Below, one piece after another: positions 1,591-55,638 of a DNA stretch of 64,000 bases (the first letter of the stretch is position 1; the number at the start of each line of letters is the position of its first letter). Both the position numbers and the translations under genes were made by a program. Under the pieces are notes generated by a model. That model made no database searches and was not told the DNA's origin. It saw only the letters and a program-made list of their open reading frames with translations. The DNA is taken from the NCBI RefSeq assembly GCF_000340215.1, contig NW_006921541.1, positions 3,383,527 to 3,447,526 of the forward strand, given 5' to 3'. This DNA comes from Pseudocercospora fijiensis CIRAD86. Taxonomy: Eukaryota; Ascomycota; Dothideomycetes; Mycosphaerellales; Mycosphaerellaceae.

Positions 1591-1638
1591 AGCTACAGTA
1601 TATTAGCAGCAACTCGGTGACATTCTATCGAAGCACGC

Positions 1639-8672: not shown

Positions 8673-8678
8673 TCGCAT

Positions 8679-27796: not shown

Positions 27797-27816
27797 TAGA
27801 CCCCGTAGTAGTTCGG
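27797..27816 (+). repeat. hAT left terminal inverted repeat
   Basis: 20 bp exactly complementary to 55611-55630. The same terminus recurs at 31697-31716 with one C/T difference (TAGACCCCGCAG). Confidence 0.92.
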
Positions 27817-28015
27817 TTTCCGAACTACTAAACGTATATAGTTTGGTTTCTTAGCGGCGAACTAGCTCCCTAGTTCCGGTTTGGTTTTTTCGAACTATAT
27901 AGATTCCTAGTTTAAACTAGAGACTGTATTGGTTTTACTATAAGGACACTCTTATTCGACTGCCGGCTACGATTGCCGGCTATAATAGTAACTCTGTTAT
28001 ATTTACTACGCTCTT

Positions 28016-28230
28016 TTACCGTTGCTAGGGCGTAGTTGCCGTTACTAGGGCGTAGTTGCTATTGCTAGGGCGTAGTTTTGCTACAAGGACACTCTTATTC
28101 GACTGCCGGCTACGATTGCCGGCTATAATAGTTACTAGGTTGTATTTACTACGCTTTATTACCGTTGCTAGGGCGTAGTTGCCGTTACTAGGGCGTAGTT
28201 GCTATTACTAGGGCGTAGTTACCGTAGTTG
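28016..28230 (+). repeat. hAT subterminal 20-bp repeats
   Basis: Two clusters of a 20-bp unit, TTGCCGTTACTAGGGCGTAG and variants, are separated by a repeat of a block that includes GCCGGCTACGATTGCCGGC. The same arrangement recurs in copy B at about 31914-32137. Subterminal repeats in hAT elements are usual transposase-binding sites (family knowledge); binding here is inferred. Confidence 0.75.
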
Positions 28231-28369
28231 CGAAAGCTTACCTATATAACGTTACGTAGGCGGTAACAATTAGGGCTTCGCGATATTCTTATACTTTTAA
28301 CTTCTTCCTCTATACCTATACCGATAATAACTACTATACGCTACGCCCCCGCCCCTTTCCCTTATAATA

Positions 28370-29790
28370 GTAAGAGAGAAGCGCGCCGCGCGCTAAATAG
28401 AAAATAGAACTAAAGACCGCGAGTTTGTTTTACCTAAGCGTCTAACTAAAAAGCGTAAGACTAAAGAGGAGTACTCTACGAAGAAGAATTCCGTACGAGA
28501 CCGCGAGAGAAAGGAGAAGATAGATAAGGATAAAAGAGCTAAGGATAAGAGAAGAAAGGCGCGGAATAAGGCATTCTATCGATAGCTAGCGCCTATAGAA
28601 AAAAGTAAAGGTTAGAATAAGAAGACAACCTAAGAGAAGGCTAAGAGGAGGAAAGAATTACGGCTAGTTTTCGAGCGTAAAGTTCTAGTAGCGTAAGTTA
28701 ATCTAGCTAGCGGCCGTAGCTAGTAGCTATAGCCGGTAGCCGTAGCCGGTAGCTATAGCCGGTATATTTTTCTTTACTACGTTAACTAAAAGCATTTAGA
28801 CCTATAGCCGCTATCTCTATCGATACGACCGATAGTAACGGAGATGTTTAGATAGCCGAGAACAATAATACTAGAGTTTAGGATACCGCGATAGAGCTTA
28901 ATACTACGAATAAAGGAACTAAAAAAAGCGAGGAGATACTATACGTCGATCTAGTAACAGGTATAGTCTTAGAGCCTAACGCTATAGACGATAAGCGCTA
29001 GGAATAAATCGAGTATAGTTAAAGAGACGAGATACTAGTAAAGGGCTAAGGTATAAGTCCTATTAATCTAGAAAATTATAGTTAAAGCTACTACGAAAAG
29101 CTAGTAAGGATTAGAATCGAGACTAGTCGTCTTTATATCCTCGATATAGAGTAGAAGTTTCTTTATTAGTATTAGAGCGAAGCCTTTACGTCTATAAAGG
29201 TAAAGTAGCTTGCGATTAATGCGATCGGGGCTAGGTATCTAAGGACGGTAGAAGTATTACTATAGGAGGAAGGGGTATAGGTAATTATTCTATACTCGGC
29301 ATATATAGCCGGCGTTCGTAGCCGGCAGATACTAACAGTTAAATAGAAAGCATTTCTCGAAGGCAGAGTGCTACTACTATATAAAATCTTTACTAAGGCA
29401 GAGAGGGCTTATATCCGGAATCTAAGCTACTAGTAGGATAGGTTAGCGTTAGAATTCTCTAAATCTCTATATAAGCCTCCGAAGGATTACCTATTTTAGC
29501 GATACGGCTTTATCTAGACTACTCCGTAGATACCCGAAGAAGCTCGAGCGCTCTTTAAGATCTTTACTAAGAAGCGGAAGGAGTTCGAGGATTAGGATTA
29601 GTTAATAGAGCTATTAGTTAGTCTTAGGTTTCGTAGTTAGACTCGGCCTAAGTATTTACTTATCGAGTGTCTTATACCGAAAGAGGATAGATTAAGACTA
29701 AAAACGAGCTTAGATTCGTTAGGTATAGTAGCTCGGTTCCGTTAGTAGGAGAGAGCCGCCGTATAGAAGGCAAAATTTAGGCAGTTAGGG
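28370..29790 (+). pseudogene. hAT ORF1, unknown protein (copy A)
   Basis: A charged N-terminal exon (RDRERKEKIDKDKRAKDKRR) is followed by an intron at 28693-28799 (GTAAGT..CATTTAG) that restores frame into PIAAISIDTTDSNGD. Further conserved-looking segments are EKLVRIRIETSRLYILDIE and ALFKIFTKKRKEFED. A second intron (copy B coordinates 33219-33266) contains TACTAAC. Both introns carry GCCGGCTA-type units. Stops lie at Gln/Trp positions. No family recognised; copy B equivalent at about 32280-33700. Confidence 0.6.
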
Positions 29791-30049
29791 TAGCTAGGAA
29801 AGAAATTCTAGTAGTTAGGCTAGCTAGGGTAGCTAGGAAAAAAAATCTAGTAGTTAGGTAGCTAGGAAACAAAAAAAAAGGTAGCTAGCTATTTACTACC
29901 TAGCTATTCCTAACGATACGATACTATAAAAGAAAGGGTATTTCCCTATAGCTACTAGTACACATCTACCACTCCTAAGTCCTAAGTCCTTACCTTACCG
30001 TACGAAACCTTAAAATATACCGACCGACATTGCATATATACTAGGCGCT

Positions 30050-31696
30050 ATACTAGGAAGGGTAATAACGAGACGATAGTCGAAACAGTCTAGTATACGA
30101 GCGAGATTGCGACAACGTCGAAAGGAGGTCGTATACTTACCTTCGAGCCTATCGAGTCCTAGACGACGATTAGGGCTAGATTTATCCTCTCCGAATCCTA
30201 GTAGTAGGAATTTATTATAGGGTACTACTACCTAGTCCTTACCTTTATAGAGTCTAAGTAGAAGGTTGTTCGGAGATATAAGAATATCGAGTATTAACCC
30301 GGAAATCTTCGAAAAGGCTAGCTAGGCGTATCTTTAGAAACCCGAGTATATAGAGCAGTTTAGTTAGTAGGTCTGTAAGATATAGTTCCCTTTATACTTA
30401 CGTTCGAAGGAGTGTAAACTCCGGAAGTACTCGATACGATAGGGGAGTAAGGAGCGAACGGATATATTCTAGAAGTTCTTTATAGAGGGGGCATTGTACC
30501 GTTATACGACTTCTCGACTTAAAGGTTAACTAGTAATTGTCTGTAACTTCTACGGTTTAATCTTAAAATACCTAAAACTAGGGGATAGGAACTTATCGCC
30601 TACGAACTATCTCTATTCTAAATAGTATCGGGAATCTTAAGGAGAGAGGAGAGTTAATATAGATATAGCGTTCTAGAAAGAGGTACGTCTTCTAAAATGC
30701 CGGCTATAGCTGCCGGCTATAGCTACCGGCTATAGCTACCGGCTATAGATTCCGGCTATAGATTCCGGCTACTTAAATCAACCGTAGAGGTCTAGCTAAT
30801 TATTATAGGCTATGCTTAAGGAAGCTCTAGGATTAAAGGCTACCGATTTCTCCCCCGAAGACTTTAAGCAACTAGTAAACGAAATGCTAGCTATAAACGG
30901 TCTTCCGGAAGACTTCTACGAAAGGGAGTCTATATAGAAGATATACCTATATCTTATAAACTACCCTCCCCTATTTCTCGGCGCGATAACCTAGCGTATT
31001 ATATTCGAAAAGAACAAAGAGGCTACGTTAGACGATATTTAGGAGATCCTCCGTAATACTCGCCGAGTAGCTATTACTATCGATGGCTAGTTAAGCCGGA
31101 CTATAAGAGCCTCCTTCCTCTCGATTATACTATACTTTATTAATTCGGATTAGAAACTCTAGGAACTTATAATCGGATTCCCTAAAATTCTAGGTTCCTA
31201 TACTAGTAAGGATATAGCGAAGCTTGTCTATACGGTAATAGATAGGGTTAGCGTAATAACGAAACTAATCTCGATTACTACGGACAACGCTAGTAATAAT
31301 CGAATATTGTATAAGGCGTTGTATATACAATTTACTCGCATATATCTTTAAAATTACTAATTGTATCGATAGGGTCGAGTATATAGAGGAGATTACAAGG
31401 TCTACAATCTAGCTTAATCTTCCGAATATTAAGCTCGCTACGATTCCGGATACGTACGACAATACGTACGATAATAACGATAAAGAGGAGCCTATTAATA
31501 GCCCTAGCCCTATTAAATCGGAGCCGACGTCGTTGCTAGTTGCATCCCTATAGAAGTTTCCCTACCTCGCTTATATAGTTCAAATCGCGATCCGAGCCCT
31601 CTTTAAGACGCTTAAAATTGCACTATTAAACGACGACTAATAGAAGATCCTAGATAAGGATAAAGCAAAGTCGAAAGTCGAGAAACTTATTATAGT
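30050..31696 (+). pseudogene. hAT transposase, truncated (copy A)
   Basis: Contains the first catalytic segment (AITIDG near 31070-31090) and TTDNASNN near 31269-31292, typical of the RNase H-like fold of hAT transposases. An intron at 30683-30808 (GTACGT..ATTATAG) holds six GCCGGCTATAG-like units. It is cut at 31696 by the terminus of copy B. Confidence 0.82.
30700..30776 (+). repeat. GCCGGCTATAG tandem array in transposase intron
   Basis: Six units of about 11-12 bp (GCCGGCTATAGCT and ACCGGCTATAGATT variants) lie within the transposase intron 30683-30808. The same array is present in copy B at about 34612-34688. Confidence 0.85.
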
Positions 31697-32279
31697 TAGA
31701 CCCCGCAGTAGTTCGGTTTCCGAACTACTAAACGTATATAGTTTAGTTTCTTAGCGGCGAACTAGCTCCCTAGTTCCGGTTTAGTTTTTTCGAACTATAT
31801 AGATTCCTAGTTTAAACTAGAGACTATATTAGTTTTACTATAAAGACACTCTTATTCGACTGCCGGCTACGATTGCCGGCTATAATAGTAACTCTATTAC
31901 ATTTACTACGCTCTTTTGCCGTTGCTAGGGCGTAGTTGTCGTTGCTAGGGCGTAGTTGCCGTTACTAGGGCGTAGTTTTGCTATAAGGATACTCTTATTC
32001 GACTACCGGCTACGATTGCCGGCTATAATAGTTACTAGGTTGTATTTACTACGCTCTATTACCGTTGCTAGGGCGTAGTTGCCGTTGCTAGGGCGTAGTT
32101 ACCGTTACTAGGGCGTAGTTGCTATTGCCGGGGCGTAGTTGCCGTAGTTACGAAAGCTTACCTATATAACGTTACGTAGGCGGCAATAATTAGGGCTTCG
32201 CGATATTCTTACACTTTTAACTTCTTCCTCTATACCTATACCGATAATAACTACTATACGCTACGCCCCCGCCCCTTTC

Positions 32280-33700
32280 CCTTACAATAGTAAGAGAGAA
32301 GCGCGCTACGCGCTAAACAGAAGATAGAACTAAAGACCGCGAGTTTGTTTTACCTAAGCGTCTAACTAAAAAGCGTAAGACTAAAGAGGAGTACTCTACG
32401 AAGAAGAATTCTATACGAGACCGCGAGAGAAAGGAGAAAATAGATAAGGATAAAAGAGCTAAGGATAAGAGAAGAAAGGCGCGGAATAAGGCATTCTATC
32501 GATAGCTAGCGCCTATAGAAAAAAGTAAAGGTTAGAATAAGAAGACAACCTAAGAGAAAGCTAAGAGGAGGAAAGAATTGCGGCTAGTTTTCGAGCGTAA
32601 AGTTCTAGTAGCGTAAGTTAATCTAGCTAGCGGCCGTAGCTAGCAGCTATAGCCGGCAGCCGTAGCCGGTAGCTATAGCCGGCATATTTTTCTTTAATAC
32701 GTTAACTAATAGTATTTAGACCTATAGCCGCTACCTCTATCGATACGACCGATAGTAACGGAGATATTTAGATAGCCGAGAACAATAATACTAGAGTTTA
32801 GGATACCGCGATAGAGCTTAATACTACGAATAAAGGAACTAAAAAAAGCGAGGAGATACTATACGTCGATCTAGTAACAGGTATAGTCTTAGGGCCTAAC
32901 GCTATAGACGATAAGCGCTAGGAGTAGATCGAGTATAGTTAAAGAGACGAGATACTAGTAAAGGGCTAAGGTATAAGTCCTATTAATCTAGAAAATTATA
33001 GTTAAAGCTACTACGAAAAGCTAGTAAGGATTAGAATCGAGACTAGTCGTCTTTATATCCTCGATATAGAGTAGAAGTTTCTTTATTAGTATTAAAGCGA
33101 AGCCTTTGCGTCTATAAAGGCAAAGTAGCTTACGATTAATGCGATCGGGGCTAGGTATCTAGGGACGGTAGAAGTATTACTATAGGAGGAAGGGGTATAG
33201 GTAATTATTCTATACTCGGTATATATAGCCGGCGTTCGTAGCCGGTAGATACTAACAGTTAAATAGAAAGCGTTTCTCGAAGGCAGAGTGCTACTACTAT
33301 ATAAAATCTTTACTAAGGTAGAGAGGGCTTATATCCGGAATCTAAGCTACTAGTAGGATAGGTTAGCGTTAGAATTCTCTAAATCTCTATATAAGCCTCC
33401 GAAGGATTACCTATTTCAGCGATACGGCTTTATCTCGACTACTCCGTAGGTACTCGAAGAAGCTCGAGCGCTCTTTAAGGTCTTTACTAAAAAGCGGAAG
33501 GAGTTCGAGGATTAGGATTAGTTAATAGAGCTATTAGTTAGTCTTAGGTTTCGTAGTTAGACTCGGCCTAAGCATTTGCTTATCGAGTGTCTTATACCGA
33601 AAGAGGATAGATTAAGACTAAAAACGAGCTTAGATTCGTTAGGTATAGTAGCTCGGTTCCGTTAGTAGGAGAGAGCCGCCGTATAGAAGGCAAAATTTAG
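32280..33700 (+). pseudogene. hAT ORF1, unknown protein (copy B)
   Basis: Near-identical to the copy A gene apart from RIP-type transitions. Its second intron, 33219-33266, is 48 nt and consists mostly of two CCGG-motif units, a TACTAAC branch site and TAAATAG. It splices in phase before KAFLEGRVLLLYKIFTKAER. Confidence 0.6.
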
Positions 33701-33959
33701 GTAGTTAGGTAGCTAGGAAAGAAATTCTAGTAGTTAGGCTAGCTAGGGTAGCTAGGAAAAAAAAATCTAGTAGTTAGGTAGCTAGGAAACAAAAAAAAGG
33801 TAGCTAGCTATTTACTACCTAGCTATTCCTAACGATATAATACTATAAAAGAAGGGGTGTTTCCCTATAGCTACTAGTATATATTTACTACTCCTAAGTC
33901 CTTACCTTACCGTACGAAACCTTAAAATATGCCGACCGATATTATATATATACTAGGCG

Positions 33960-36870
33960 CTATACTAGGAAAGGTAATAACGAGACGATAGTCGAAACAG
34001 TCTAGTATACGAGCGAGATTGCGACAACGTCGAGAGGAGGTCGTATACTTACCTTCGAGCCTATCGAGTCCTAGACGACGATTAGGGCTAGATTTATCCT
34101 CTCCGAATCCTAGTAGTAGGAATTTATTATAGGGTACTACTACCTAGTCCTTACCTTTATAGAGTCTAAGTAGAAGGTTGTTCGGAGATATAAGAACATC
34201 GAGTATTAACCCGGAAATCTTCGAAAAGGCTAGCTAGGCGTATCTTTAGAAACCCGAGTATATAGAGCAGTTTAGTTAGTAGGTCTATAAGATATAGTTC
34301 CCTTTATACTTACGTTCGAAGGAGTATAAACTCCGGAAGTACTCGATACGATAGGGGAGTAAGGAGCGAACGGATATATTCTAGAAGTTCTTTATAGAGG
34401 GGGCATTATACCGTTATACGACTTCTCGACTTAAAGGTTAACTAGTAATTGTCTATAACTTCTACGGTTTAATCTTAAAATACCTAAAACTAGGGGATAG
34501 GAACTTATCGCCTACGAACTATCTCTATTCTAAATAGTATCGGGAATCTTAAGGAGAGAGGAGAGTTAATATAGATATAGCGTTCTAGAAAGAGGTACGT
34601 CTTCTAAAATGCCGGCTATAGCTGCCGGCTATAGCTACCGGCTATAGCTACCGGCTATAGATTCCGGCTATAGATTCCGGCTACTTGAATCAACCGTAGA
34701 GGTCTAGCTAATTATTATAGGCTACGCTTAAGGAAGCTCTAGGATTAAAGGCTACCGATTTCTCCCCCGAAGACTTTAAGCAACTAGTAAACGAAATGCT
34801 AGCTACAAACGGTCTTCCGGAAGACTTCTACGAAAGGGAGTCTATATAGAAGATATACCTATATCTTATAAACTACCCTCCCCTATTTCTCGGCGCGATA
34901 ACCTAGCGTATTATATTCGAAAAGAACAAAGAGGCTACGTTAGACGATATTTAGGAGATCCTCCGTAATACTCGCCGAGTAGCTATTACTATCGATAGCT
35001 AGTTAAGCCGGACTATAAGAGCCTCCTTCCTCTCGATTATACTATACTTTATTAATTCGGATTAGAAACTCTAGGAACTTATAATCGGATTCCCTGAAAT
35101 TCTAGGTTCCTATACTAGTAAGGATATAGCGAAGCTTGTCTATACGGCAATAGATAGGGTTAGCGTAACAACGAAACTAATCTCGATTACTACGGACAAC
35201 GCTAGTAATAATCGAACATTATATAAGGCGTTGTATATACAATTCACTCGTATATGTCTTTAAAATTACTAATTGTATCGATAGGGTTGAGTACGTAGAG
35301 GAGATTATAAGGTCTATAATCTAGCTTAATCTTCCGAATGTTAAGCTCGCTACGATTCCGGATACGCACGACAATACGCACGATAATAACGATAAAGAGG
35401 AGCCTATTAATAGCCCTAGCCCTATTAAATCGGAGCCGACGTCGTTGCTAGTTGCATCCCTATAGAAGTTTCCCTACCTCGCTTATATAGTTCAAATCGC
35501 GATCCGAGCCCTCTTTAAGACGCTTAAAATTGCACTATTAAACGACGACTAATAGAAGATCCTAGATAAGGATAAAGCAAAGTCGAAAGTCGAGAAACTT
35601 ATTATAGTAATAAGACGGGATAAGGCAGAGAGCCTCGCTCTCGTTTTATATAAGGTATAACTTTTGTCCGTAGCCGGCACCTATAGCCGGTAACCTAGTA
35701 TAGTTCTAACTCTTTTTCTCTAGCTTCGTCGTCTAGCAATATATACGAACTCGAGCTTATAGAGATATAACCGATTCGAGGCTATTTAAAAGAACCTAAT
35801 CGAGCGCCTTAAAACCGATGCCTAGAATATCGTATAGAATAAGCGATAGCAAAAGCGGCCTCCTTAGCGCCTACTCTGTTTTACCTAAGACGTTAAGACC
35901 CGGTTCGATTCGACTTTCTATATAGTTACGAGGGGATATACTTTACGTACCGCTCTCGAGATCTATTAGAGTTCCGAGGGTATTAAGTAGCTCGGCCTTA
36001 CCGCCGCCGAATAGCGCTAAGTAGAGTATCTCGTCGATATTAGTAAGTATTACGCGAAGGTTACTACTACGATTAGAAGAACCCGAGGACCGACGATCTA
36101 CCTTATCTTTACGTACTATAACTAGCTCTTTAACGAGCTCGAGGAAACCGTAGCTAAGCTAGCTAAGAAGAGCGTTCCCTAGAAAGTAGCTATAACGAAA
36201 GCTATAGACACCTCCTATACTAAGTTATATAAATATTATAGTACTACCTTTAACTCGTTCGGGGATATCTATAGCGTTACGTACTTGCTTAACCCGGTAG
36301 AAAAGGATATATACTAGCAGAGGCCGGAATAGAAGGCGGACGAGGTATAGCCGAAGCATTACTAGACTATTCTAGAAAAGATGTTCTACGAGCGTCGGAA
36401 AGAAACTAGTCTAAATACAGCTCCTATAAAGAAAAAGAAGGTTTAGAAGGCTCCGATATTATACCTATTTCGTAGGTAGGAAGTAGAGGTAGAAGAGGAA
36501 GCAACTACTAAAGTAAATAAAGAAGAGTTCGATCTCTATTAGCGCGCGAGTAAGTATAAACCCGTAGGCTCGGAAAGAGGGCTAATAATCTCTAGATCTT
36601 ACCGGTCTTCTAGACGAATTCGGAGACGATATTCTCGCTATATAGTAGCGGTTAGAGCCTAAGTTTCTAACGATAGCGTCGGTCGCTCGGAACGTCCTCG
36701 CTATCCCGAGCGTAGGTATAGGCTATAAGAGGTCTTTTAGTATCGCTCGTTACTAGGGCCGCTTTAATCGAATATACTCGCCTACTACCTTCGAATCTAT
36801 TATAGTATTCCGATACTATCTCCTCTACTAGAATCGCTAAGGTAGGTTACTAAAGATTATACTAAAGGAG
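33960..36870 (+). pseudogene. hAT transposase, full-length but RIP-decayed (copy B)
   Basis: It carries the same N-terminal half as copy A, with TIDS in place of TIDG, and introns at 34595-34720 and 35655-35723, both with CCGGCTA units. The second has the donor GTATAA and the 3' signal TTCTAAC..CTCTAG and splices in phase (LVLYK / LRRLAIYTN). Downstream come the VKTRFDSTFYIVTRGYTLR segment (canonical RWNSTY) and the C-terminal dimerisation domain (FLTIASVARNVLAIPSVGIG, then RSFSIARY) near 36640-36860. This last part is in another frame from the acidic segment before it, so a further intron or shift is present. Confidence 0.82.
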
Positions 36871-37382
36871 TTAATCGAGGAATTAGAAAACCTTAAGATC
36901 GAAGAAACCTAGGAGCGCAAAGAGAATACGAAATTTAGTCTAAGCGAAACCCTAATTAGCGATAACGAAGAGGAGGAGGGCGGAGGTAGAAGGCGATACC
37001 GGGTCGAGAAGCGGAAACGTATATAGGCTTAGAGTAGCTTTAAAGAGACGAAGCGTTTACGTATAAGGTAATATAGCCGGCGTATATAGCCGGTATATAT
37101 CCGAAATATGTTTCGAATTCCTAGGACCTAAACAGACTAGTTACTATAGCAACCGACCCCGCTTACCTACGGACTATTTCTAATTCTCTATTCGCTCTTC
37201 CTCTCCTTCTTCCCTTTCCCTATATTCTTAAAGATAAATATACCTTAAGGATTCGGCTCTTCGGGCCTTCCTAAGCTAGCTGCCTCCCCTTCCTTAAGCT
37301 ACTATCCTTTATTCGAATCTAACGATAACCTACTAAGGCGGTTTAATAAAAGACTATTTGTTCTAGAAGATAAGAAGTATTA

Positions 37383-38050
37383 ATGTCTCCTTACGATTAT
37401 ATACTTATTAATTTTCTAGGTCCTACCGATATACCCTCGTTACCTAAACGCGTAGATAAATATCTTTAGAGGCTAAAGGGTAAGGGTAAAGTAAGCTAAG
37501 TATAGGGAGACCGTAGCGAGAACGAGATATCGGAAGAGTAAGGCTCTCCGTAGTATATACGAAGGAAGGGGGTTCCTCGGAAAACAGTACCGAAAAATAA
37601 GAAGGCTATAGGTAGATAGGAGAAGGCTAAAAAGAGTAGGCGGACGAAGACTATCGCGAAGAAAAGTTATCTTTCTATTAAAAGAAAGGGAATAAGGCAG
37701 GACTCGACGATAAAGAAGCGGCGCTTTAAACTAGGTACTATTGCCCTTCGCTAGATCCGGCTTTTCTAAAATAAAAGAGGGACCGAGCTTTTAATCCCTA
37801 AGACTCCCTTCTAGCGACTCGTCTGAGAAATTATATTAGATTTTTAGTCTAGTATACGATTTACGGCTAAGGCGATTAGTACTCTTTAGGAAGCTACGGA
37901 GGCATTTCTCGTAACCGAGCTTAAGCTTTTAAACCTCCTTACTATCTATACGAAGCGGGTTACTCTTTAAAATAAAGATATATAGCTTCTAGCTAAAATT
38001 CGGCGTCGGTTTATAGCGGATTAGTTAGAAATTGTATTTAGTCGTTAGAT
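37383..38050 (+). pseudogene. histone H3-like gene 1 in the hAT element
   Basis: One frame from ATG 37383-37385 keeps coding character through 38050. The first 110 codons form a long Lys/Arg-rich tail (KGVPRKTVPKNKKAIG, KKSRRTKTIAKKS). Codons from 37713 match the H3 histone fold in order and spacing: KKRRFKLGTIALR-IRLF, then TELLIPKTPF-RLV-EI, then IRFTAKAIST, EATEAFLVTELKLLNLLTIY, and TKRVTL-NKDI-LLAKIRRRF. The hyphens are TAG/TAA/TGA at sites where H3 has Gln or Arg, as RIP would leave. Loop 1 has the same length as canonical H3, so it is not CENP-A-like on that criterion. Tail lysine spacing is not canonical, unlike gene 2. Confidence 0.85.
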
Positions 38051-38179
38051 TAACCTAGGAGGAGGCCTATTTTCGCATCCTTTTACCGGCTATAGGTGCC
38101 GGCTATATTTCTAATTTTATCTCCGCGCCGTCCCTAAATCTAAGGTACGAAGTAGAAACCTAGCGCTCTATATTTACCC

Positions 38180-39136
38180 GGCTATTACAGAGACGAGCTA
38201 TATTTAGATTAGTTTCTTCGCATATCGCGACCTAGCGGGTAGTAAGCGAAAGGGCGATAGAACGTTTATAATACGTCTCTATTTAGACCTAAAACATAAA
38301 GGTCCTAAGGAGCCCTAGTATCCTAACTATAAGGAGATTCTTTAGTATTAGCACTTTAATCCTCTATACTACGAGGCAGATAGTAAGCCTATAAGAGAGA
38401 AACTTTAACGAGAAATTCTCTATAATACGTAGCGCTATTATATAGCTATAGATACGTACTAAGTCCGGCAACTCGAAGAAGAATTAAGATAGCGTATTAG
38501 CGACCGAGGAAGAGATCGATAGTATACTAGTAGAGTCGAGGTCTTATAAGCGAAGCATAAGATAATATAGGCTCTTAGTCGTATAGAGTAACGCACTATA
38601 TAAATAACTAGGCGTACTACTCTTATTTACTTACGACCTATATCCTAGGATGCTCTTCTTATACTTTTTATACTCTTTTCTAATACCTTACCTATAATCG
38701 CTCCGCGACAACCGAGTAAATATAAGCTATAGGATTTCCGCTCGGTACCTTAGTCTTCGAGATACGGCGGAGTTGATTCTCTATAATACGTAGCGCTATT
38801 ATATAGCTATAGATGCGTACTAAGTCCGGCAACTCGAAGAAGAATTAAGATAGCGTATTAGCGACCGAGGAGGAGATCGATAGTATACTAGTAGAGTCGA
38901 GGTCTTATAAGCGAAGTATAAGATAATATAGGCTCTTAGTCGTATAGAGTAACGTACTATATAAATAACTAGGCGTACTACTCTTATTCACTTACGACCT
39001 ATATCCTAGGATACTCTTCTCGTACTTTTTATACTCTTTTCTAATACCTTACCTATAAGCGCTCCGCGACAACCGAGTAAATATAAGCTATAGGGTTTCC
39101 GCTCGGTACCTTAGCCTCCGAGATAGGGCGGAGTTA
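38180..39136 (+). pseudogene. unknown coding-like frame and 361-bp tandem duplication
   Basis: A plus-strand frame from about 38183 reads ISFFAYRDLAGSKRKGDRTF, LYLDLKHKGPKEP and HFNPLYYEADSKPIREKL, with stops only at likely Gln codons. It then enters a 361-bp unit (38415-38775) repeated once at 38776-39136. The frame in the unit is charged (VRQLEEELRQRISDRGRDRQ). No family recognised. The two units are nearly identical, with transitions between them. Confidence 0.5.
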
Positions 39137-39677
39137 AATTTAGAGCGATAGCCGGCACTCGTAGCCGGTATATAGAGACGGTAGTAGGCCTTTTCCTACT
39201 AAATAACTAGCTTGTTTAGTATAGCCTACCTAATATTTCTTATATTTACTAGCAATAGGCCTAGGTTACTTATAAGATTACTATAGCTAGTAAAGGCATT
39301 ACTAAAGAATATCTATACTATAGTAGGATACTATTATTACGCCGGCTATTTATTAAAAGGAGGCTTTCGCCTATTACTATGCCGGCTATATATGCCGGCT
39401 ATATTTCAAAGTCTGCCGTACCTGCCTTTTTTAGCCGTGGCTGCCTTTTTTAGCCGTACCTACCTTCTTTCCTTACTCTAACGTTACTATAATATAGGCT
39501 TGCGCGAAGCTTACTCTATTACCTAGCGATACCGCGATACTACCGCTATATTCAACCTTCGTATCGATACCTATACCTCTACGCTTTATATCTACTACCT
39601 CCGTAATACCCTCGCTCCGCGCGCGCCTTCGTATACCTTCGTAACGTACTTTTTTCCTCAATTCGACGACTTTTATA

Positions 39678-40350
39678 ATAGCGAGTCTACTTAACTAAGT
39701 TACGACGCCTCGCAAGAAGGGACCTAGTGCTTCTACGGGTCGCAATAAGACCGGAAATAGTAGAACGAGTATAGTACATTAACGTAAGAAGGCTGCTACT
39801 ACTACCGCTAGCTCCGGTACTAGAAAGGGCGTCGCGAGTAAGGCTCCGCGTAAGACAATAGCGGGTAAGGCTCTACGCAAGACGACAACTAGCGCTTCTA
39901 CTACTAGTAGCAATCGTACGAAGCGTCGATAGCGCCTAGGAAGTAAGTCCTATTTATAGCCGGTAGCGTAGCCGGTAGCGTAGCCGGCATTCTTACTATC
40001 TTTTTACTAATCCTTCTTTAGCCGTAGCCCTCCGTTAGATTCGGTAGTATTAGAAGAGTTCTAAGCTCCTAATCCGTAAGGCTCCTTTCTAACGACTTGT
40101 TCGCGAAATTGCCTAGGATTATAGAACGGACCTTCGCTTCTAAGCCTCCGCGATAGGCGCCCTTTAAGAGGCTATAGAAGCCTACCTAGTTCGTATCTTC
40201 GAATATATGTTTCTCTTCTACCTCTTTTCGGACTATACTAATACTATTTTAGCGGTCAACCTTATAGCTATCTACGCGAAGCGCATAACGATTACAGACA
40301 AGGATTTCAAAGCACTCGATTAGATTCTAAAAGGCTAGAATGTCTATATT
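39678..40350 (+). pseudogene. histone H3-like gene 2 in the hAT element, with introns
   Basis: Three exons join in phase: 39678-39942, 40022-40204 and 40253 onward. The probable start codon is now ATA (ATG by RIP). The 88-codon N-terminal exon is basic and contains RKGVASKAPRKTIAGKALRK, which matches the canonical H3 tail around K9, K14, K18, K23 and K27 with identical spacing (S10 is Gly, S28 is Thr). Intron 1 (GTAAGT..TTACTAATCC..TTTAG) splices to give GTVALR-IR-Y-KSSKLLIRK, followed by APF-RLVREIA-DYRTDLRF and ASAIGAL-EAIEAYLVRIFE. Intron 2 (donor ATATGT, RIP from GTATGT) joins FES to VNLIAIYAKRITITDKDF. The C terminus beyond that diverges from H3. Confidence 0.9.
39955..39992 (+). repeat. 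TAGCCGGTAGCG array in H3-like gene 2 intron 1
   Basis: Three units (TAGCCGGTAGCG twice, then TAGCCGGC) lie between the GTAAGT donor and the TTACTAAT branch site of the intron 39943-40021. Confidence 0.85.
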
Positions 40351-40559
40351 CGAGACGGTGCTAGGTAGGATAGATATTCTAGTAGAAAGGATGTTCGTAG
40401 TATTATTTATAAGCTTTTCTAGATACGAAATAAGCCGCTGCTACACGGCGCTATATACCGCGCTCTAAATACTCTCTAAGTATATATATATAGTATAGTA
40501 TGCTTTATTAGCCGTACGGAATAGAAGTCTCCTAAAATCCCGTTAGTACTAAGGAGTAA

Positions 40560-40620
40560 AAAGGCCGGCTACGCTACCGGCTACGCTGCCGGCTACGCTA
40601 CTAGCTACGCTACTAGGTTT
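40560..40620 (+). repeat. GCCGGCTACGCT tandem array
   Basis: Five 12-bp units with sequence GCCGGCTACGCT or ACCGGCTACGCT, degrading to ACTAGCTACGCT, follow the H3-like gene 2 region. Smaller clusters occur at about 28718-28766, 37072-37100, 38086-38108, 39144-39166, 39340-39412 and 41428-41448. Confidence 0.8.
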
Positions 40621-40679
40621 TTTAAAGAACTAAAAGAAGATAGACATTCCGGTTGATTTGTATTAGTTTAGATTTTTAT

Positions 40680-41202
40680 AAAAAGAAAATAGGGAAAAAT
40701 AAGGAAGGTTAAAGAGCCTAATAGTTATAGTTATAGGCACTATCCCTGTTTTCTAGAGTATATTATATACCTGCCTTCGTAACTCTACCTAATACTCCCT
40801 CTAAATATCCTTATACTCTACCTACTAGAAATTTAACTAGGTACCTAGACCTATAGCTGCCTCTATATCTTTTACTATCTTCTATAGATTAAAGGCCTCT
40901 TCTATAGCAGCCTCTACCTCCTTATACAATACGAAGTTACTACCTACCCTACCCTTTATATCTCCTAAATAACTAAGAGTTCTAAGGAACGAACTAGCAT
41001 TCGGCCTTAGTATAGCGAGTAACTAGTAGAACGTTCTATAGAGCTGCCTTATAGCTCTTTTATATACTATACCGATACCGAAGGAGGAGCTATCCTAGTA
41101 CTTAATATTATCGAATAGTTCGGTAGGAAAGTGTATAAACTTCTTAAGGAGGAGGACTTCTAGGGAAATCGATAAGTTCTACCTAGATCTAGATAAAGAC
41201 AT
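40680..41202 (-). pseudogene. unknown antisense coding-like frame in the hAT element
   Basis: From ATG 41200-41202 the minus strand keeps one frame (KKFIHFPTELFDNIKY, SSSFGIGIVYKRAIRQLYRT, VLYKEVEAAIEEAFNL, KIVKDIEAAIGLGT), with TAG at plausible Gln/Trp positions. It is helical and mixed-charge. I do not recognise it. It is the only clear minus-strand gene candidate in the element and lies about 0.3 kb beyond H3-like gene 2. Confidence 0.45.
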
Positions 41203-41478
41203 TCTACTAAGCAGTTAGGGAATTAAACCGTAAACGAAAGGATAAAATTCATACCTAAGGAGTACAGTTTCCGAACTAAACTATAATGCCTTATATATGT
41301 ATATATATGCTTTTGATTAGTTAGTGCCCTTAGCTGATTGTCTATAGATTTAAGGTTATATAAGTACCTTTATATAACTATATAGCCTAAGTAGGATTCG
41401 AAAATTCTATAAGTACTAAGGACTAAAAATGCCGGCTACGCTACCGGCTATACTACTAAGTCTTACAAAGGGCTTGCT

Positions 41479-41666
41479 TGTTACGATATAACACTATTAT
41501 ATATACGATAGTAGGCAGCGGTTACTATCGACCGCTACGGTCGCTATTGCTACTAATAGTAGGACTATTATATAGATAGCTTGCCTCGCGGCATTTTAGA
41601 GAATATATTAACTTTTATACCGTATAACCGTTACGATACCTTCGTACTATAACCGTATGCCTAGCA
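41479..41666 (+). repeat. Gypsy-2 left LTR
   Basis: 188 bp from TGTTACGATATAAC to GCCTAGCA. It differs from the right LTR by transitions. Confidence 0.92.
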
Positions 41667-41692
41667 ACTTAGTAGCTTCGCTTAATACTTAG

Positions 41693-43880
41693 TTGGCTTC
41701 TATACTAACTACTAGTCCTCTACCCGAATCGACCCCGGTCGTTACGGCTACGACGAGAATCGACGCGATTAGCTACGGGTCCTACCGATCTTCCGCCGAT
41801 TACTACGATTTAACTCCTACCCGTTACGACGGTACCTATTCGATTTACTACCCTTCCGCACTATACCCTACCGACGCGCGAGCGCCTTATCGGCGATCCT
41901 ATTAGTACCCCGAGGAGATAGTAGTAGTAGTTTCTACCTTTAGTAGCAATTGCCTACTATACTTAGGTCTAGGGGCAGCCGCTTTCCCTAGGAGGACCTG
42001 CTCTAATAAGCTACGCTCCTCCGCCTTTAGTCGGTTCTCCGTTATTGTCCTCTATCTAGAGACTATCTCGCCTCTACCCTCTTACTAATAGTTTACTCGC
42101 TTGCCGTAGCTCCTTCGGACTTGCTTCTAACTCCGGTAGAAGCCTCGAAATTAGCTAAGCTAGCGGTTTAACCGCTGCCCTAGTACTACAATCTCGGATT
42201 GCTAGATATAGAGCCCTATATTCTACGTATCTGTTCCTATATTTAGAACTACGTCGATTATAGCGAGAACTTCGCGACCTAGCTTAGGGTAAAGTACGGC
42301 CGAATCGACTTGCTTACCTTATACGTTCTATACTATTACCCGCTCGTAGGAAATCCGCCGCCTCTATAGGCTAAAATCGAGGAACTCTACCTAGACGCCC
42401 TTAACGGTTACAACTTCCTAGGATAGTAGATAGTAGATAAAGGAATTCTAACTAAATCGGTTAAGGAGCTTAAAGCCGCGCTCCTAACGGTACGCGATTT
42501 ACGTTATTACCGTTAATTCTACCTAGAGATCTATCTACTACCTATAGTAGAGTAGCGCCTACCGGCCCGACTAGCTTAAGTTCTACCGCGGCCTATAGTT
42601 TCGCCTATTACTACGGTAGAAACAACCGTACCGCCGGAATAGCGTTATTAGACCGCTATACTAGTGCGCCCGTTTACTAGCGTCTTATACCGCGACAAAA
42701 GATCGGAAGTATCCGCGCTTACTAAGCGTAGATCTCGGGCGCACTTATAGGCTAGGGTCGCTACGTACTTAGCGCTAAGCCTCCTCGGCTTCTACCTTAT
42801 ACGCGCTTCCCTTTTTTTAGCTACGGCCCTGTAGCTAGTTAGCCTTAGCATACCCCGCACCCGTACGTATAGCTGAGCAGCTAATAAAATCTTCTAATAC
42901 CCCGTATCCGAATGTATAGCCGAGCTAATAAAATCTAATACCCCGTACCCGAACGTATAGCTAAGTATCTAATTAGAATTGCGTCGCAATCTAACAAACA
43001 AACAAGCCTATAAGCTAACCCCTCTAAGGTAGGTGCGCCTATAGCCGAGTCGCGCGCCTAAGGCAATTAGGTACCTCCGAAGCCGCGTCTACTAAGGATT
43101 AGCCTAGTCGGCTAAGAACGTACGCCGAGAATCGAACGCGCGACCTTAACCTACAGACCGTAAAGCGCGGATACTATATTAGACCGCTACACTAGTGCGC
43201 CCGTTTACTAGCGTCTTACGCCGCGATAAAAGATCGGAAGTATCCGCGCTTACTAAGCGTAGATCTCGGGCGCACTTATAGGCTAGGGTCGCTACGTACT
43301 TAGCGCTAAGCCTCCTCGGCTTCTGCCTTATAAGCGTCCTAGTTCGCCTAATAGCTCGCTTAAATCGGTTTTCTTATAAAGGCTACTTAAGCTACGATAC
43401 CTAGCGGACGAGAATCCTTAGAAGCTAAAGGGGCCTCTACCTAAGACTTCCTCTAAGGAACCGTTAACTAGGCCTTCCGATCTATCGACGTTACCGTTCT
43501 AGGACATCGGTCGCGGCTAATTGCCTCTAATAAACGATAGCCTCGCCGACCTATAGGCTAACAAGCCGCGTAGTCGTTTCTAATATCGTACCCTAGTAGA
43601 TGCCTTATAGACAACCGAGGAGATCGATAGGGCGAATATCGCTATATAATAAAACCGTTAGCGTCGTAATTATCTTCGCGAATTAGCTAGATAGAGAGGA
43701 GTCTATCTTAACGAAGTCGTACTAGACTTTCTAATAGAATAGGCGATTTCTCCGCTATCGGCTACGCGTAAGCTAAGTCCGCCCTAGCCGAACCTAGGTT
43801 AATACGATTACTAGTAGAGGGTAGACGTATATATAAATGCCTATAGGCATAGCCGCTTACGTCGGGGCAGGTTTGCGCTA
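41693..43880 (+). other. Gypsy-2 leader region with duplicated block
   Basis: Begins with an open 70-codon segment (41693-41902; MASILTTSPLPESTPVVTAT) rich in Ser, Thr and Tyr, then decayed frames without a recognised domain. A direct repeat of about 160 bp (42646-42806 and 43177-43336) brackets about 370 bp that include a tRNA-like sequence on the minus strand. Confidence 0.5.
43115..43200 (-). other. tRNA-like / SINE-like sequence
   Basis: The minus strand reads GTGTAGCGGTCTAATATAGT, TTTACGGTCTGTAGG, then GCGTTCGATTCTCGGCG. The A-box-like TAGCGGTCTAA (43179-43189) and B-box-like GTTCGATTC (43129-43137) are correctly ordered and about 40 bp apart, as in a tRNA-derived polymerase III promoter. 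The acceptor stem is not convincing, so I call it tRNA-derived rather than a tRNA gene. Confidence 0.45.
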
Positions 43881-46740
43881 GGCGATCCGCCTAGTAATCC
43901 GCCTAGTAATCCTCCTAGCAATCTACTTAGTAATCCTCCTAACGATCCTCTACTACCGCTACCTAGTAACTTCGATCCGGGTAATTCCTCTCGTAAGCCG
44001 ACTTAGGGTTAGCCTTTGCCCTTTCCGCCGTTAGACTTATATAGTCTACTACGGGAAAGTAAGAAGCAACGCTAGAGGCACCGTCGGTATAGGGATAATC
44101 CGAGTAAGAATAGATCCTTATTAGATAGTAAGGATTCGGACGACTTCGATTAATCCTCGTCGGATAACGATAGCTCCTTAGATGCTAGTTATTATAGATA
44201 CGCCCGCCGTCGCAGATACTATTAGTATTATCGGGACTACGTCGCGGAATCGCTAGTTTCTAAAGCGAGTTATATCTAGGGGTACTACGCCCGCCCCTAG
44301 CGGCTATAGTTCGATTTAGCGTATCTTAGATTCTTCGATCCTCTACTTAGTATTATAGATTACGGCGAGGGAGACTACGCCTTAGTCGGGAACAAGATAA
44401 TATACTGTTCGGTATATACTTTTATCGAAGCGGCTAAGGATTATACTTATATCGTAGAGCGAGAGACAGTTCGTCTTAATCTCTCTCTTTACTTTCGAGA
44501 GATAGCGCTTAGTTAGTATTATAGTTACCTTTCTAGCCGTAACCGAGTAAAGCTCCGCGGCGGATACGGTCTAAAGCGCTAGGAACGTTATCTTAGTAAG
44601 AAATAGAAGGTCCCTCCGATAAAGGCGATAGATCTCCTCGATAAGTAACGCTACGACCGGTAGGATATCGCTTTAAGGCGTTTAGTAACGGACTTTATTA
44701 TTAAGACGGTGCGACTCGCTAAGGATACCGGCGTACAGAAATCGAACCGGCTCTTAGAAGCTTACCGTCGAATAGACCCGCGCCTCTAATTAAACATAGA
44801 CGAGCTAAATTGTCGTATAAAGGTCGATAAGTAGGTTACGTACTATAAAAAGCAGGCATTAATTTAGGAGCATATACTTTCGTTCTCGTCTAATCGTCGC
44901 TAAGACGCTATAACTAGGAACAATAGCCGCGCTAGTAAGGCTACCTAGTAGAACCGATACAAAGGGAACGCCTCTTATACTCTAGCGAGCTTCGCTCTAG
45001 TAAGAGTATCCCCTAACTACCGGAACCGCGATATCGACCGACCGAACCTACTACGCCTTACTAACGCCTATTAGTAGAATCGCCTACCTAACGCCCCTTA
45101 GTAGAATCGCCTGCCGCTAGTAGGAAATAGTAAAGGACCGTCGAAGGATAGTAGCCCTACCTTCCTTCTAAAAGACCTAAAGCGAGTCGATTCGCGCCTA
45201 TTTAATCGATAGGATAGAAAGCGCAACGATCGAGCTTGTAAGTAGGCTAACTTTGCCGATAATAGTAAGAAAGTAGGCGATACTATAAATAATGCTAACT
45301 AAGCCGATAACGGCTATCGGGAGGATAGTTAGGAGGATAATAGAAGAACCGACGCGGATAATTATAGCTATTTTAGTAACGCCGGAGAAGACGCCGACTA
45401 CTTTACCGACCTATACGACTCCGATCCGGGCTTAGGAGCTTACTTTGCAAGCGTAGGCGACTGCTCGCTATTAGCGTTAAACTCGGTACTATAGGCTAAA
45501 GCGTCCCTACCGGCGGCGATCTAACTATTTGCCTCTACGAAGCACGCTTATAAGGTCTATAGACGGCGATTTAAGTTAGGCAACCTTCTATACTAGTATG
45601 TCTATAAGGAGTATATAGGGGCGACGACGCCTTCTACTATTATCGAACGCATATCGGTAAACCCGGAAGTAATTTAGTCGAAGGCGCCTCCGTTAGCTTA
45701 GTAAGGTTACGTATTCCGGAATTAGTAATATATAACTTTCCCTCTTCGGTTGTTACTATCCGGTATATCTATATAGGTCTGCCTAGATACTAGCTATACG
45801 CTTACTATTACGAAAAAAGACTTCGTTTTAAGCTATCGCCCGGACGTAGAGGTACGCAAGCTACGCGAACTAATCGAAATCGGCGGTATTACCGGCGCGT
45901 ATCGCTCTAGGGAATACGTCGTATTAGACATATTTGTCCTAGTAGCAAAGACGGACGGTATAGTCTCCCTAGTACGAATAACTCGTAAGGTTTACCTAGT
46001 TCCTAAACTAAAGGCAAAAATCCTAGTCGGTATAGATACGATTACTCTAGAGAGAATAAAGATCGATATTCCCGTACGGACAGTTACTATAGCTAGTTAG
46101 GATAACGCCCGCTTTAAAGTAGCTATTAAGCGTAAGAAAGGGAAGTCGGTTTAGCGCCCCGTAAGGCTAGCGGAGGACGTAATATTAGCGCCGCGTACGG
46201 TCGCCCTCGCGCTAGTTAAGTATAGCGGTAACCTCCCTAAGGGCCGGGATTTCATTCTTAACGCCGGTTTCTTAGTCTAGCTAACTAGCAATATATAGGG
46301 ATTGTCGTTACAAGCTCCGCCGTTAGTAACGGCGTATAATTAGGTCGTAGACGCTAATTTTTCTTATATATATATTCGTAACAATGCGACGACTCTAGTA
46401 ACGATTCGAGCCGGATAGCTACTTAGTTCGTTAAGTAATAGGACTATTGCTAGGGCCTACTATATCGACGTAGCCGACTACGGACTAGCGGGATTAAGTC
46501 CTAACGCTTTTACGGCTACGCGGGATATGCTAAATGCGTAGCGGGAACACTAGTACGCGTTAGGCGTAACGATCTATAGTAACGATAACTAGGTAGACTA
46601 AATCGCTATAGCGGTCGAGCGGTACCTAGAGCTTTTTACTAATCGCTAAACGGTCGTTAATATTCCCGAGCACGATTATATACCTATCCTAACTGTACTA
46701 AATTACCTAGATCTGTTACCGCCCCCTCTCGTATAATTAA
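43880..46740 (+). pseudogene. Gypsy-2 Gag and protease
   Basis: The frame starts with a PPSN repeat (near 43880-43935), then a long Gag-like charged protein (YYQYYRDYVAESLVSKASYI, RLVTDFIIKTVRLAKDTG) and an Asn/Asp-rich nucleocapsid-like region. The retropepsin is near 45760-46130 (VCLDTSYTLTITKKDF, a RIP-altered DTG site). Confidence 0.65.
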
Positions 46741-49700
46741 CCTAGGCAAGAGGGATCGTAAAGTAGTAGATAAGATATATAACGACCTATACCGCTAAGG
46801 GAAGATATAGTACACAACCGAGCCTACGCCCTTCGGCTTTCTAGTGTTTGTCGTATAGAAGCGCGTTGCTAACGGTAAAGGTAGTATAATTAATAAGCTA
46901 CGGGCGGTAGTCGATATACGCGCCTTAAATAAGATAACAATCCTCGATAGCTATTAGATACCGCTCTAGGCGGATCTCTTTATATAGTTAGTAGGGTGCT
47001 AGTATATTAGCACTATAGACTGTCTAACCTTCTTCTACTAATAGGGCGTAAAGCCGGAGGATCGTTATAAATTAACGATTAATACTTATCGTAGCTAGGA
47101 ATAGTATAAGGTCGCTATTATAGGATATTCGAATAGTGTCTAATTCGTATAGCGGAAGCTAGATTAGATCCTTCGCGACTATCGCAGCTTTACGCGGGTA
47201 TATATCGACGATATCGTAGTGTTTTCGTAGACGTTGCCTAAGTATCTCGATTATCTAGAAGCGGTTTTCTAGAGATTAGACGCCGTAAGGATTAGCATTA
47301 GTCCGAAGAAGACTTTCTTAGGCTTCCCCTCTACGACCCTTTTAGGTTAGTACGTTAGCGGCCTCGGTTTAGCTACGAGTAAGGAGAAAATCGTAGCGAT
47401 TACCTTACTTTAGTTCCCGGAAAACGTATAGAAGCTAGAGCATTATCTCGGTCTAACTAATTAGTTGCGGCAATATATCCTATACTACGCGCAGATAGCG
47501 GCGCCTCTATAGGCGGAGAAAATACGCTTATTAAAAGGGGCGCTAGTTACCGGCAATAGTCGTCGCCGGCACGTCGCCGTTACAACGCTAGGTAAGAACG
47601 ATTAGTACCGCGACGAGCTAGTAAAAGCGTTTCGCTTATTACAATCGATATTCTACGAGCCCTCCTTCCTATACTATTTCGACTCTAACCGTCGCTTATA
47701 CGCTAATATAGATTCCTCTAAGAGTTTAGCTATAGCGCAGTGCTCTACTATATCGATAGGGAGGGGATCCTCTAGAGCGGGACATATGATAGGACTAGAC
47801 TCTATTCTATCTAAGGGAAGGCGTAGTTGTTTCCTTACTATAAGGTTTAGCCTATTCTATTCTTAAGCCGAGGCCTAACTTAGGCGGAGATACGATATTA
47901 GCCGATAGAGCTCGAATACTCGGGAATCGTATAGATAGTAAAGAAGGTAGGCTATTTAATATATGCTTTATCGAGGCCGACGACTATCTTTATAGACTAC
48001 TATACCGCGGTCGGTCTTACTAACTCGGTATCGATAACTACGACTACCGATATAGGTAAGCAGAACCTAAAGTTAGTAAGGGTATCGATGTTCCTTTCCT
48101 AATATCGAGTTAATATAGTTTACCGTCTAGGGCGGATATACCTAGTTCTAGACGCCCTTAGTCGACTTCTAGGGGATATAGAGTCGCCTAAGTTAACGCC
48201 GGACAAGGAGAACTTAGACCCGCTCTCTTACTATACCGACGTTACGCCCTCTTCGGCCGATCTAGAGGAAGTAGCCTACTTCTATACGATATTAGTAGAG
48301 CTAGATCCGGATTTCCGACGTCGGTTAAACCGAGCGTACGATAACGACGAATATTAGTCTAGGGTTTTACGACTAGTTCGATAAGCGTAGGCGCGGAATG
48401 CTTTAGAGCGCCTCTATTCGGAAGGAGCTAATATGCCTTCGGTAACGAAAACGCTAGTTCGGTATAAGGGTAGCAAAAATCCGGACCTATTTATAGGTAA
48501 TAAGTTTAATAGTCCGCTAGGCATTCGATTCTTCGAGAGAGACGGCCTCTTATATTTCCGTAACTAATCTTTAGGGCGCGAGCGACTCTATATCTCTTAG
48601 GCCTTAATAGGCGAGATCTTCGAGTAGGCTTACGATAACCGTTGCTACTAAGGCTTTTAGCGCGTCTTCGACCGCATTTAAGCTTCCTTCTTTATATATC
48701 GACTCGCTCGCTACCTTCGCCTCTATTTAGATTACTATTACTAGTGTCTCCTTTTACGTACCCCCTAATACGCTCCTTACGGCGAACTTTACCCGATCTA
48801 GAATATAGAGGGCCTATACTATACTATAACGATAGATCTCGTAACTGCCTTACCGGTTACGACCGATAGTTTTAATATACTATATACGATTACTTATAAG
48901 ACGTCTAAGCAGGTAGTAGTCGTCCTAGGTAAAGAGGACTAGAAGGCCTACGACTAGGGCATCGCTCTAATCGATAGGCTTTGCTTAATAGATATAAGTT
49001 TGCTAGTAGTGCTTATCGCTAATCGTAATCCTCGCTAGCTAAGCGACTTCTTTAAGGGCGTTTTCTCGCGCCTACGTACGAAGCTAGCTACGTCTATAGC
49101 CTATTACCCTTAAACCGATAGTTAATCCGAGCGAACTAACTAAACAGTCGAGACGGCGATTCGTTACTAGTTAGCGGATTATCCTAGCGAGAATTAGACG
49201 ACGTTTATCCTATAGCTATAGGCTACGCTTAATAACTCCTGTAATACGACTACCGGTTAGTCGCCGAACGAGGTTGCTATAGGCGTAAGGACGAATCTCG
49301 ACTCGCTCGATATACTATACGACTATCTGTATAATAGGGCGGTAGCGCGTAGCCGTATCTAGAAGGAAGTCTAGGACGCGATTGCTTAGGCGAACGTAAA
49401 GATAAAAGAACGGTATAACAGCAAGTATAAGCCCCTATTCCTTAAGCTAGGTAACCGTATTATACTTCGCCTATACTGTAGTTACGAAGTGCTAGGTTAG
49501 TCGTACAAGTTTAGCTACCGTTTTAAAGGGCCTTTTACGGTTCTTAAGAAAGTCGGACGACTAGCCTACTATCTCGAGTTGCCGCTATTAATACGTATCT
49601 ATCCGGTAATATCGGTTTCGTAGTTAGAAAAAGCCCCTAAAGACCTAGATCCTTTTAAGAGAACTATTAATTACGAGCCCCCGCCCGTTATAGCTAAGGA

Positions 49701-55090: not shown

Positions 55091-55281
55091 CCGACGCAGT
55101 TATTACTAGAGAGACACGATTCTGTACCTAGCATTACCGTTCTAGTATACTGTTTAGGTTTAGCCTTTGTGCGACGCTATTACGCTCTTTTTGCCTTAAA
55201 CCTTCCTACGGTGCGGCCTGCTAAGGACCTTTGTTTTAGGACACTATAGACAGTGCCGACCTTTTTTATAGGGAGGGAGGC

Positions 55282-55469: not shown

Positions 55470-55610
55470 TTGCTTAAAGCTACGTATACATTCGTACACT
55501 TCTTAAAAACCGATAAATTATATAGTTCGAACTAGCTACTTATATAGTTGCTTAGCAAACTAACCTAAACTAAACTAGAGTTTCGGCTTAGCAAACTAAA
55601 CCAAACTAAC

Positions 55611-55630
55611 CCGAACTACTACGGGGTCTA
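55611..55630 (-). repeat. hAT right terminal inverted repeat
   Basis: Reverse complement of the left terminus, followed directly by the AAAGAAGA duplication and then the rest of the gypsy-1 chromodomain. Confidence 0.92.
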
Positions 55631-55638
55631 AAAGAAGA

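What the first reader, a model, noticed from the sequence alone, without database searches (positions are those of the whole stretch)
37383..40350. A hAT DNA transposon carrying two histone H3-like genes
Seen: two separate frames between the hAT transposase and its right terminus match the H3 histone fold over its whole length, in order and spacing (for example GTIALR-IRLF and TKRVTL-NKDI in gene 1; GTVALR-IR-Y, RLVREIA-DYRTDLRF and VNLIAIYAKRIT in gene 2). Stops fall where H3 has Gln or Arg, as RIP predicts. Known: core histones are rarely found as transposon cargo, and I know of no hAT element described with H3. Inferred: the two genes are diverged paralogues acquired by the element, perhaps to shape chromatin on the element or evade silencing.
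Basis: partly seen in the sequence, partly recalled or inferred. Interest (0 to 1): 0.94.

Follow-up and report, generated by a model that had tools for sequence, protein, structure and literature searches.

The report
Transposon carrying two histone H3-like genes
The window holds a dead copy of a jumping gene that carries two relatives of the DNA-packaging protein histone H3; this was already published for what looks like the same fungus, but one of the two genes appears to contain introns, which argues against the published idea of how it was picked up.

Summary
Both frames match the histone family (E 4.7e-19, 4.1e-19) and lie in a ~9.6-kb element with inverted ends and 8-bp target duplications. 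Manning et al. 2013 reported hAT-borne H3 in Pyrenophora tritici-repentis; Dhillon et al. 2019 reported this very family, RIP-inactivated, in Pseudocercospora fijiensis, most likely this genome.

Added here: (1) the published "16-amino-acid insertion" in the second copy reads as a 48-bp intron (donor G kept in 3 of 12 copies) and a 79-bp intron lies upstream; removing both restores exact H3 register, so this copy is no intronless retrocopy. (2) A diverged subfamily carries both genes and both introns; the two H3s form separate clades, each holding both subfamilies. (3) Transversions alone put both cores 19-21% from host H3, and all 5 indels in the H3 frames are multiples of three, against 5 of 24 in noncoding parts. 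This suggests old, once-working genes; other selection tests are weak, and function is unproven.

The parts
27797..31696 (+). Left part of an older (outer) copy of the element, element positions 1-3906; preceded by target duplication AAAGAAGA at 27789-27796
31697..41479 (+). Main copy of the hAT element, element positions 1-9432, interrupted at 41479
55470..55630 (+). Right end of the element (positions 9427-9587) with terminal inverted repeat; followed by AAAGAAGA at 55631-55638, which pairs with the duplication left of 27797
34050..36950 (+). hAT-type transposase region (limits approximate, exons not mapped, RIPed)
   Evidence: sub-threshold Dimer_Tnp_hAT match at 36604-36960 (other copies); conserved between subfamilies
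37383..38058 (+). H3-1: H3-like gene, core from 37734, no intron in the core, long basic N-terminal stretch (true start unknown)
39690..40350 (+). H3-2: H3-like gene, exons about 39690-39942, 40022-40204, 40253-40350 (true start and end unknown)
39943..40021 (+). Presumed intron 1 of H3-2, 79 bp, GTAAGT ... ACTAAT ... TTTAG, holds a CCGGCTA-type repeat; one codon from the second intron of host H3
   Evidence: present in subfamily B
40205..40252 (+). Presumed intron 2 of H3-2, 48 bp, the '16 AA insertion' of PMC6710886; donor G in 3 of 12 copies; TACTAAT, TTTTAG
   Evidence: present in subfamily B

Best explanation
This is one RIP-killed copy of a high-copy, ~9.6-kb hAT DNA transposon family of (most likely) Pseudocercospora fijiensis, already described in print. 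Between its inverted ends it carries a hAT-type transposase and two different histone H3-like genes on the same strand. Shown: both H3 frames, element ends, 8-bp duplications, high copy number, RIP signature. Inferred: the transposase moved the whole block by cut and paste, so the H3 genes were amplified with it; being repeated, they were then mutated by RIP, mostly to stops in Gln codons; host H3 escaped because the element's genes were already too unlike it. Also inferred: copy 2 entered as, or became, an intron-bearing gene rather than a processed transcript, and both genes sat in the element, still coding, before its two subfamilies split.
For: Histone matches. Full copy of 9587 bp with inverted ends and exact duplication ATTCTAGT; subfamily B copy of 8599 bp with GAAGTAAA. 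Genome counts: 349 places for an H3-1 32-mer and 294 for an H3-2 32-mer with up to 3 mismatches, 0 for the reversed controls. Linkage: 10 of 11 hAT copies in range have H3-1 and 7 of 11 have H3-2 by exact match; 62 of 100 exact H3-1 places have an exact H3-2 on the same strand within 9 kb, 60 of them at 1.96-2.41 kb. Agreement with PMC6710886 in size, TIR, TSD, two H3 copies, 16-codon insertion, RIP, and host H3 with two introns on the sixth sequence. Introns. Both subfamilies in each H3 clade. In-frame indels 5 of 5 against 5 of 24 (p 0.002).
Against: 38 of 100 exact H3-1 places have no exact H3-2 partner within 9 kb (truncated or mutated copies would give this). Pfam finds no hAT domain above cut-off. 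Codon-position tests of constraint between subfamilies are weak: combined cores p 0.015, H3-2 core 0.026, but H3-1 core 0.31, whole genes 0.49 and 0.77, H3-2 tail the other way at 0.07. The presumed introns show 1 of 78 and 0 of 48 transversions between subfamilies, fewer than the exons, which is odd for introns. The intron scan finds 3 strings in the element; Markov controls average 0.74 but reach 3, so place and register, not number, carry the case. The species name is inferred.
Confidence: 0.88

Rival explanations
1. Published model (PMC6710886): an intronless H3 transcript or retrocopy was captured; the second copy is the same with a 16-residue insertion mutation; all copies are passive passengers killed by RIP.
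For: H3-1 has no intron where host H3 has its second one. The codon tests for constraint are weak in part. The authors recovered exon-exon junctions after their own deRIP.
Against: H3-2 has two intron-like stretches whose removal restores exact H3 register, one with its donor G kept in 3 of 12 copies, both shared with subfamily B. H3-1 and H3-2 are no closer to each other (42 of 79) than to host H3 (45 of 84, 55 of 83). In-frame indels 5 of 5.
Confidence: 0.2
2. H3-2 is a genomic (intron-bearing) capture but neither gene ever worked for the element; the constraint seen dates from before capture.
For: Weak codon-position signals; no copy without stops among the element copies scored: 148 of 150 scored histone matches carry stops, the other two being host H3 and host CENP-A.
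Against: Indels between the two subfamilies arose inside the element and are all in frame; both genes kept in both subfamilies although the spacer between them is not alignable; combined-core p 0.015.
Confidence: 0.4
3. The H3 block is a separate insertion in a hAT element.
For: The window is a nest of insertions.
Against: Near-fixed spacing to hAT in 9 of 11 copies; copies on C4 and C12 have the duplication at the outer ends; both genes also in subfamily B.
Confidence: 0.02

Closest known systems
Histone H3-carrying hAT family of Pseudocercospora fijiensis, Dhillon et al. 2019, PMC6710886 (read: abstract, Results, part 1 of 2 of the Discussion, Methods; passages; Conclusions, Discussion part 2 and supplements not read)
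   Same: About 9.5-9.9 kb, 20-bp TIR, 8-bp TSD, two H3-like copies in full elements, second copy longer by 16 codons, RIP, hundreds of copies, original H3 with two introns on scaffold 6
   Different: The paper reports no introns and infers capture of a transcript; here copy 2 shows two presumed introns, the two H3s are separate old lineages, and a second subfamily is seen
hAT element with H3L of Pyrenophora tritici-repentis, Manning et al. 2013, PMC3538342 (passages read)
   Same: hAT element with an H3-like gene between its inverted ends; H3L is neither H3 nor CenH3 proper
   Different: 5.6 kb and 2.3 kb forms, one H3L, a central ORF, little RIP, ESTs exist; Dhillon et al. found no nucleotide similarity between the hAT elements; not compared here
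[quoted passage not shown]
   Same: Fungal DNA transposons, a hAT group among them, that carry a chromatin- or DNA-methylation-related gene
   Different: An enzyme, not a core histone; that hAT group makes 7-bp duplications

Membership tests
hAT superfamily | 8-bp target site duplication | tested here: met
   Exact in the two copies whose both ends were seen (C4 ATTCTAGT, C12 GAAGTAAA) and for the outer pair in the window (AAAGAAGA); 7 other copies were fetched only in part or lack an end in the stretch held, or were not checked
hAT superfamily | Short terminal inverted repeats | tested here: met
   TAGACCC...AGTAGTTCGG against CCGAACTACT...GGGTCTA
hAT superfamily | hAT transposase domains | tested here: inconclusive
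   Dimer_Tnp_hAT below cut-off in 5 of 5 pieces, none in whole frames; DUF659 reported by PMC6710886, not found here
Histone H3 | Histone fold with H3 as best match | tested here: met
CENP-A / CenH3 | Lengthened loop 1 with Trp, as in host CENP-A (VAPPGSEVTRWQ); that this marks CENP-A is recalled | tested here: not met
   Both element genes have H3 length there and Phe in place of Trp (against L043)
H3-hAT family of PMC6710886 | Size, TIR, TSD, two H3 copies with 16-codon difference, RIP | tested here: met
H3-hAT family of PMC6710886 | Intronless H3 copies (the paper's retrocopy claim) | tested here: not met
   H3-1 core intronless; H3-2 with two presumed introns

The most novel reading that the evidence does not exclude
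The hAT lineage carries two long-resident H3 variants rather than passive gene scraps: one intronless in its core with a long basic N-terminal stretch, one intron-bearing with an H3-type tail whose K9 site is altered (TRKG in place of ARKS in the window copy). Both were kept as working proteins through the split of two subfamilies, giving the element its own nucleosome variant and blunting host silencing. Host H3 needed no protection from RIP because the element genes had already left the identity range for RIP before they were amplified.
Probability: 0.28. Interest if true: 0.75.

Novelty: already known. Interest (0 to 1): 0.36.

Why it matters
The find itself is in print, but its published origin, capture of an H3 transcript, does not fit copy 2 if its two introns are real. 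If the two H3 genes were long-lived, selected parts of the element, fungal hAT transposons would be a setting, besides DNA viruses (known to me from the title and abstract of PMC9145170 in a search listing), in which selfish DNA brings its own core histone. The less damaged Pyrenophora elements would allow a direct test.

Tried and rejected
Protein searches with H3-1 and with a transposase piece found nothing at their thresholds. The search with H3-2 gave a top hit from Taxus (P0001) that looked special; it is a canonical H3 with a duplicated end that lifts its score; rejected. No hAT-borne H3L of another fungus was recognised among the 120 of 622 hits listed. NCBIfam gave nothing, and Pfam nothing for a piece of the spacer, 38115-38500. 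The tree (8 reference proteins chosen from the 120 listed, host H3, host CENP-A, 8 element genes) cannot say whether H3-1 and H3-2 are sisters or two captures, since three groups meet without a firm root; within the H3-1 clade the A row falls among the B rows (94/84), so subfamilies are not cleanly parted there. Third-position transversion tests on whole genes between subfamilies failed; in the transposase, the best of three frames in one of four pieces gave p 0.003, the rest nothing. In the H3-2 core test one intron base was counted as a dummy first position. Dropped before counting: 28 of 100 listed H3-2 places and 29 of 40 hAT places lay outside the range of the H3-1 list, indels between 38060 and 39250, where the subfamilies do not align, and beyond 40450.

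Full report
What was claimed.

The H3 frames are real. Read through with X at stops, both match the Pfam histone family far above its cut-off (69.3 and 69.5 bits against 26.4; E 4.7e-19 and 4.1e-19). Against solved structures both match histone H3 best. Of 17 stops in the two 92-codon cores, 10 lie at host Gln positions, which make up 7 of 92 columns (p 8e-8). The region has the RIP dinucleotide pattern and both flanks lack it.

The element. The genome (73.9 Mb, 30 contigs) holds hundreds of copies. A 32-base H3-1 pattern occurs at 349 places and an H3-2 pattern at 294 with up to 3 mismatches, the reversed controls at none. A full copy on contig 4 is 9587 bp with inverted ends and the exact duplication ATTCTAGT. 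In the window the left part of an older copy (27797-31696) is followed by a second copy (31697-41479). The outer duplication AAAGAAGA pairs 27797 with the right end at 55630, which fits nesting followed by recombination (inference). An insertion of about 14 kb with 186-bp, 93%-identical ends splits the copy at 41479 and looks like an LTR element. Of 11 full-length hAT copies that could be checked, 10 have an exact H3-1 match downstream (9 at 874-875 bp, one at 1157) and 7 an exact H3-2 match; only exact matches were counted, so the true numbers may be higher. Of 100 exact H3-1 places, 62 have an exact H3-2 within 9 kb. Of 150 histone-family matches scored, out of 772 candidates, 148 carry stops; the other two are host H3 and host CENP-A.

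It is published. Manning et al. 2013 (PMC3538342; passages read) described hAT elements with an H3-like gene in Pyrenophora tritici-repentis. Dhillon et al. 2019 (PMC6710886; abstract, Results, part of the Discussion and Methods read) described this family in Pseudocercospora fijiensis: 784 H3-like copies in 471 elements, full length 9.5-9.9 kb, 20-bp TIR, 8-bp TSD, two H3-like copies in full elements, all inactivated by RIP, the original H3 with two introns on scaffold 6. Our host H3 lies on contig 6 and has two introns of 166 and 55 bp. I take the genome to be P. fijiensis; that is inference.

What does not fit the publication. The paper says the second copy has a 16-residue insertion and that no intron is present, hence a transcript was captured. 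In H3-2 I find a 48-bp stretch, 16 codons, with TACTAAT and TTTTAG, whose first base is A in the window but G, giving GTATGT, in 3 of 12 copies. A 79-bp stretch GTAAGT...ACTAAT...TTTAG stands between tail and core. Leaving both out joins an H3-type tail to the core in exact H3 register. A strict scan finds 3 such strings on the + strand of the element copy and none on the - strand; Markov controls average 0.74 and reach 3 in one or more of 50 runs. The number alone proves little, but two of the three lie exactly where H3 register demands. Intron 1 lies one codon from the second intron of host H3; intron 2 has no counterpart there (own reading). Both stretches are present in subfamily B; in one of four B copies, C17, the intron-1 donor pattern was not found. 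H3-1 has no intron in its core. Against: between subfamilies the two stretches show fewer transversions (1 of 78, 0 of 48) than the exons. The literature searches listed no other paper on H3 in hAT elements by title or abstract start; supplements were not searched, so I claim only that the main-text passages seen do not report these introns.

Age and constraint. RIP makes transitions only (established knowledge), so transversions are free of it. Over 276 core sites transversions separate H3-2 from host H3 at 53 and H3-1 at 59. So even without transitions the cores are at most 81% and 79% identical to host H3, about at the 80% limit that PMC6710886 gives for RIP. A second subfamily, met in L003, has a copy on contig 12 of 8599 bp with duplication GAAGTAAA. 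It carries both genes, while the spacer between them does not align; its H3-1 scores 90.4 bits to PF00125. In a tree of 18 rows H3-1 of both subfamilies forms one clade (100/100) and H3-2 of both another (98/97), so both genes predate the subfamilies. All 5 indels between subfamilies in H3 reading frames are multiples of 3, against 5 of 24 in alignable noncoding parts (p 0.002); in the transposase span, whose exons are not mapped, 3 of 6 are. Third-position excess of transversions between subfamilies: combined cores p 0.015, H3-2 core 0.026, H3-1 core 0.31, whole genes 0.49 and 0.77, H3-2 tail the other way at 0.07. Between H3-1 and H3-2: p 0.020; host H3 and H3-2: 0.023; host H3 and H3-1: 0.35. 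I read this as moderate support for constraint on the proteins before RIP.

Tail. In H3-2 the lysines that line up with K14, K18, K23 and K27 are kept, while the K9 site reads TRKG in place of ARKS in the window copy (own alignment). The change of Ala to Thr could be RIP; that of Ser to Gly could not be. A link to silencing is speculation.

Verdict. A known hAT-H3 element, correctly spotted and wrongly thought new. The additions are the presumed introns of copy 2, the two old H3 lineages shared by two subfamilies, and the transversion argument.

Noticed in passing
41480-55469: Insertion of about 14 kb with 186-bp, 93%-identical ends, probably an LTR retrotransposon, splits the hAT copy; a second pair of 186-bp repeats lies at 42622-42805 and 43153-43336.
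   Followed up: partly
34609-34680, 38083-38107, 39378-39405, 39957-39987, 40563-40627, 41430-41456: Short CCGGCTA(T/C)-type repeats are scattered through the element, in both orientations, one array inside the presumed intron 1 of H3-2.
   Followed up: no
38415-38714 and 38776-39075: A direct repeat of 300 bp (97% identical, spacing 361) lies between the two H3 genes; the H3-1 to H3-2 distance of other copies clusters near 1993 and 2330-2410 bp, as if one unit were present or absent.
   Followed up: partly
L039 178-8776 (G000:C12:614177-622775): A diverged, less RIP-damaged subfamily of the same element, 79% identical over aligned bases to the window copy, with its own exact 8-bp duplication.
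   Followed up: yes
L043 (G000:C5:605400-607900): Intact host CENP-A-like gene with an intron after ..PFSRLV.
   Followed up: yes
window 39940-40252 against host H3: The presumed introns of H3-2 changed less between subfamilies by transversion (1 of 78, 0 of 48) than the exons; unexplained.
   Followed up: no
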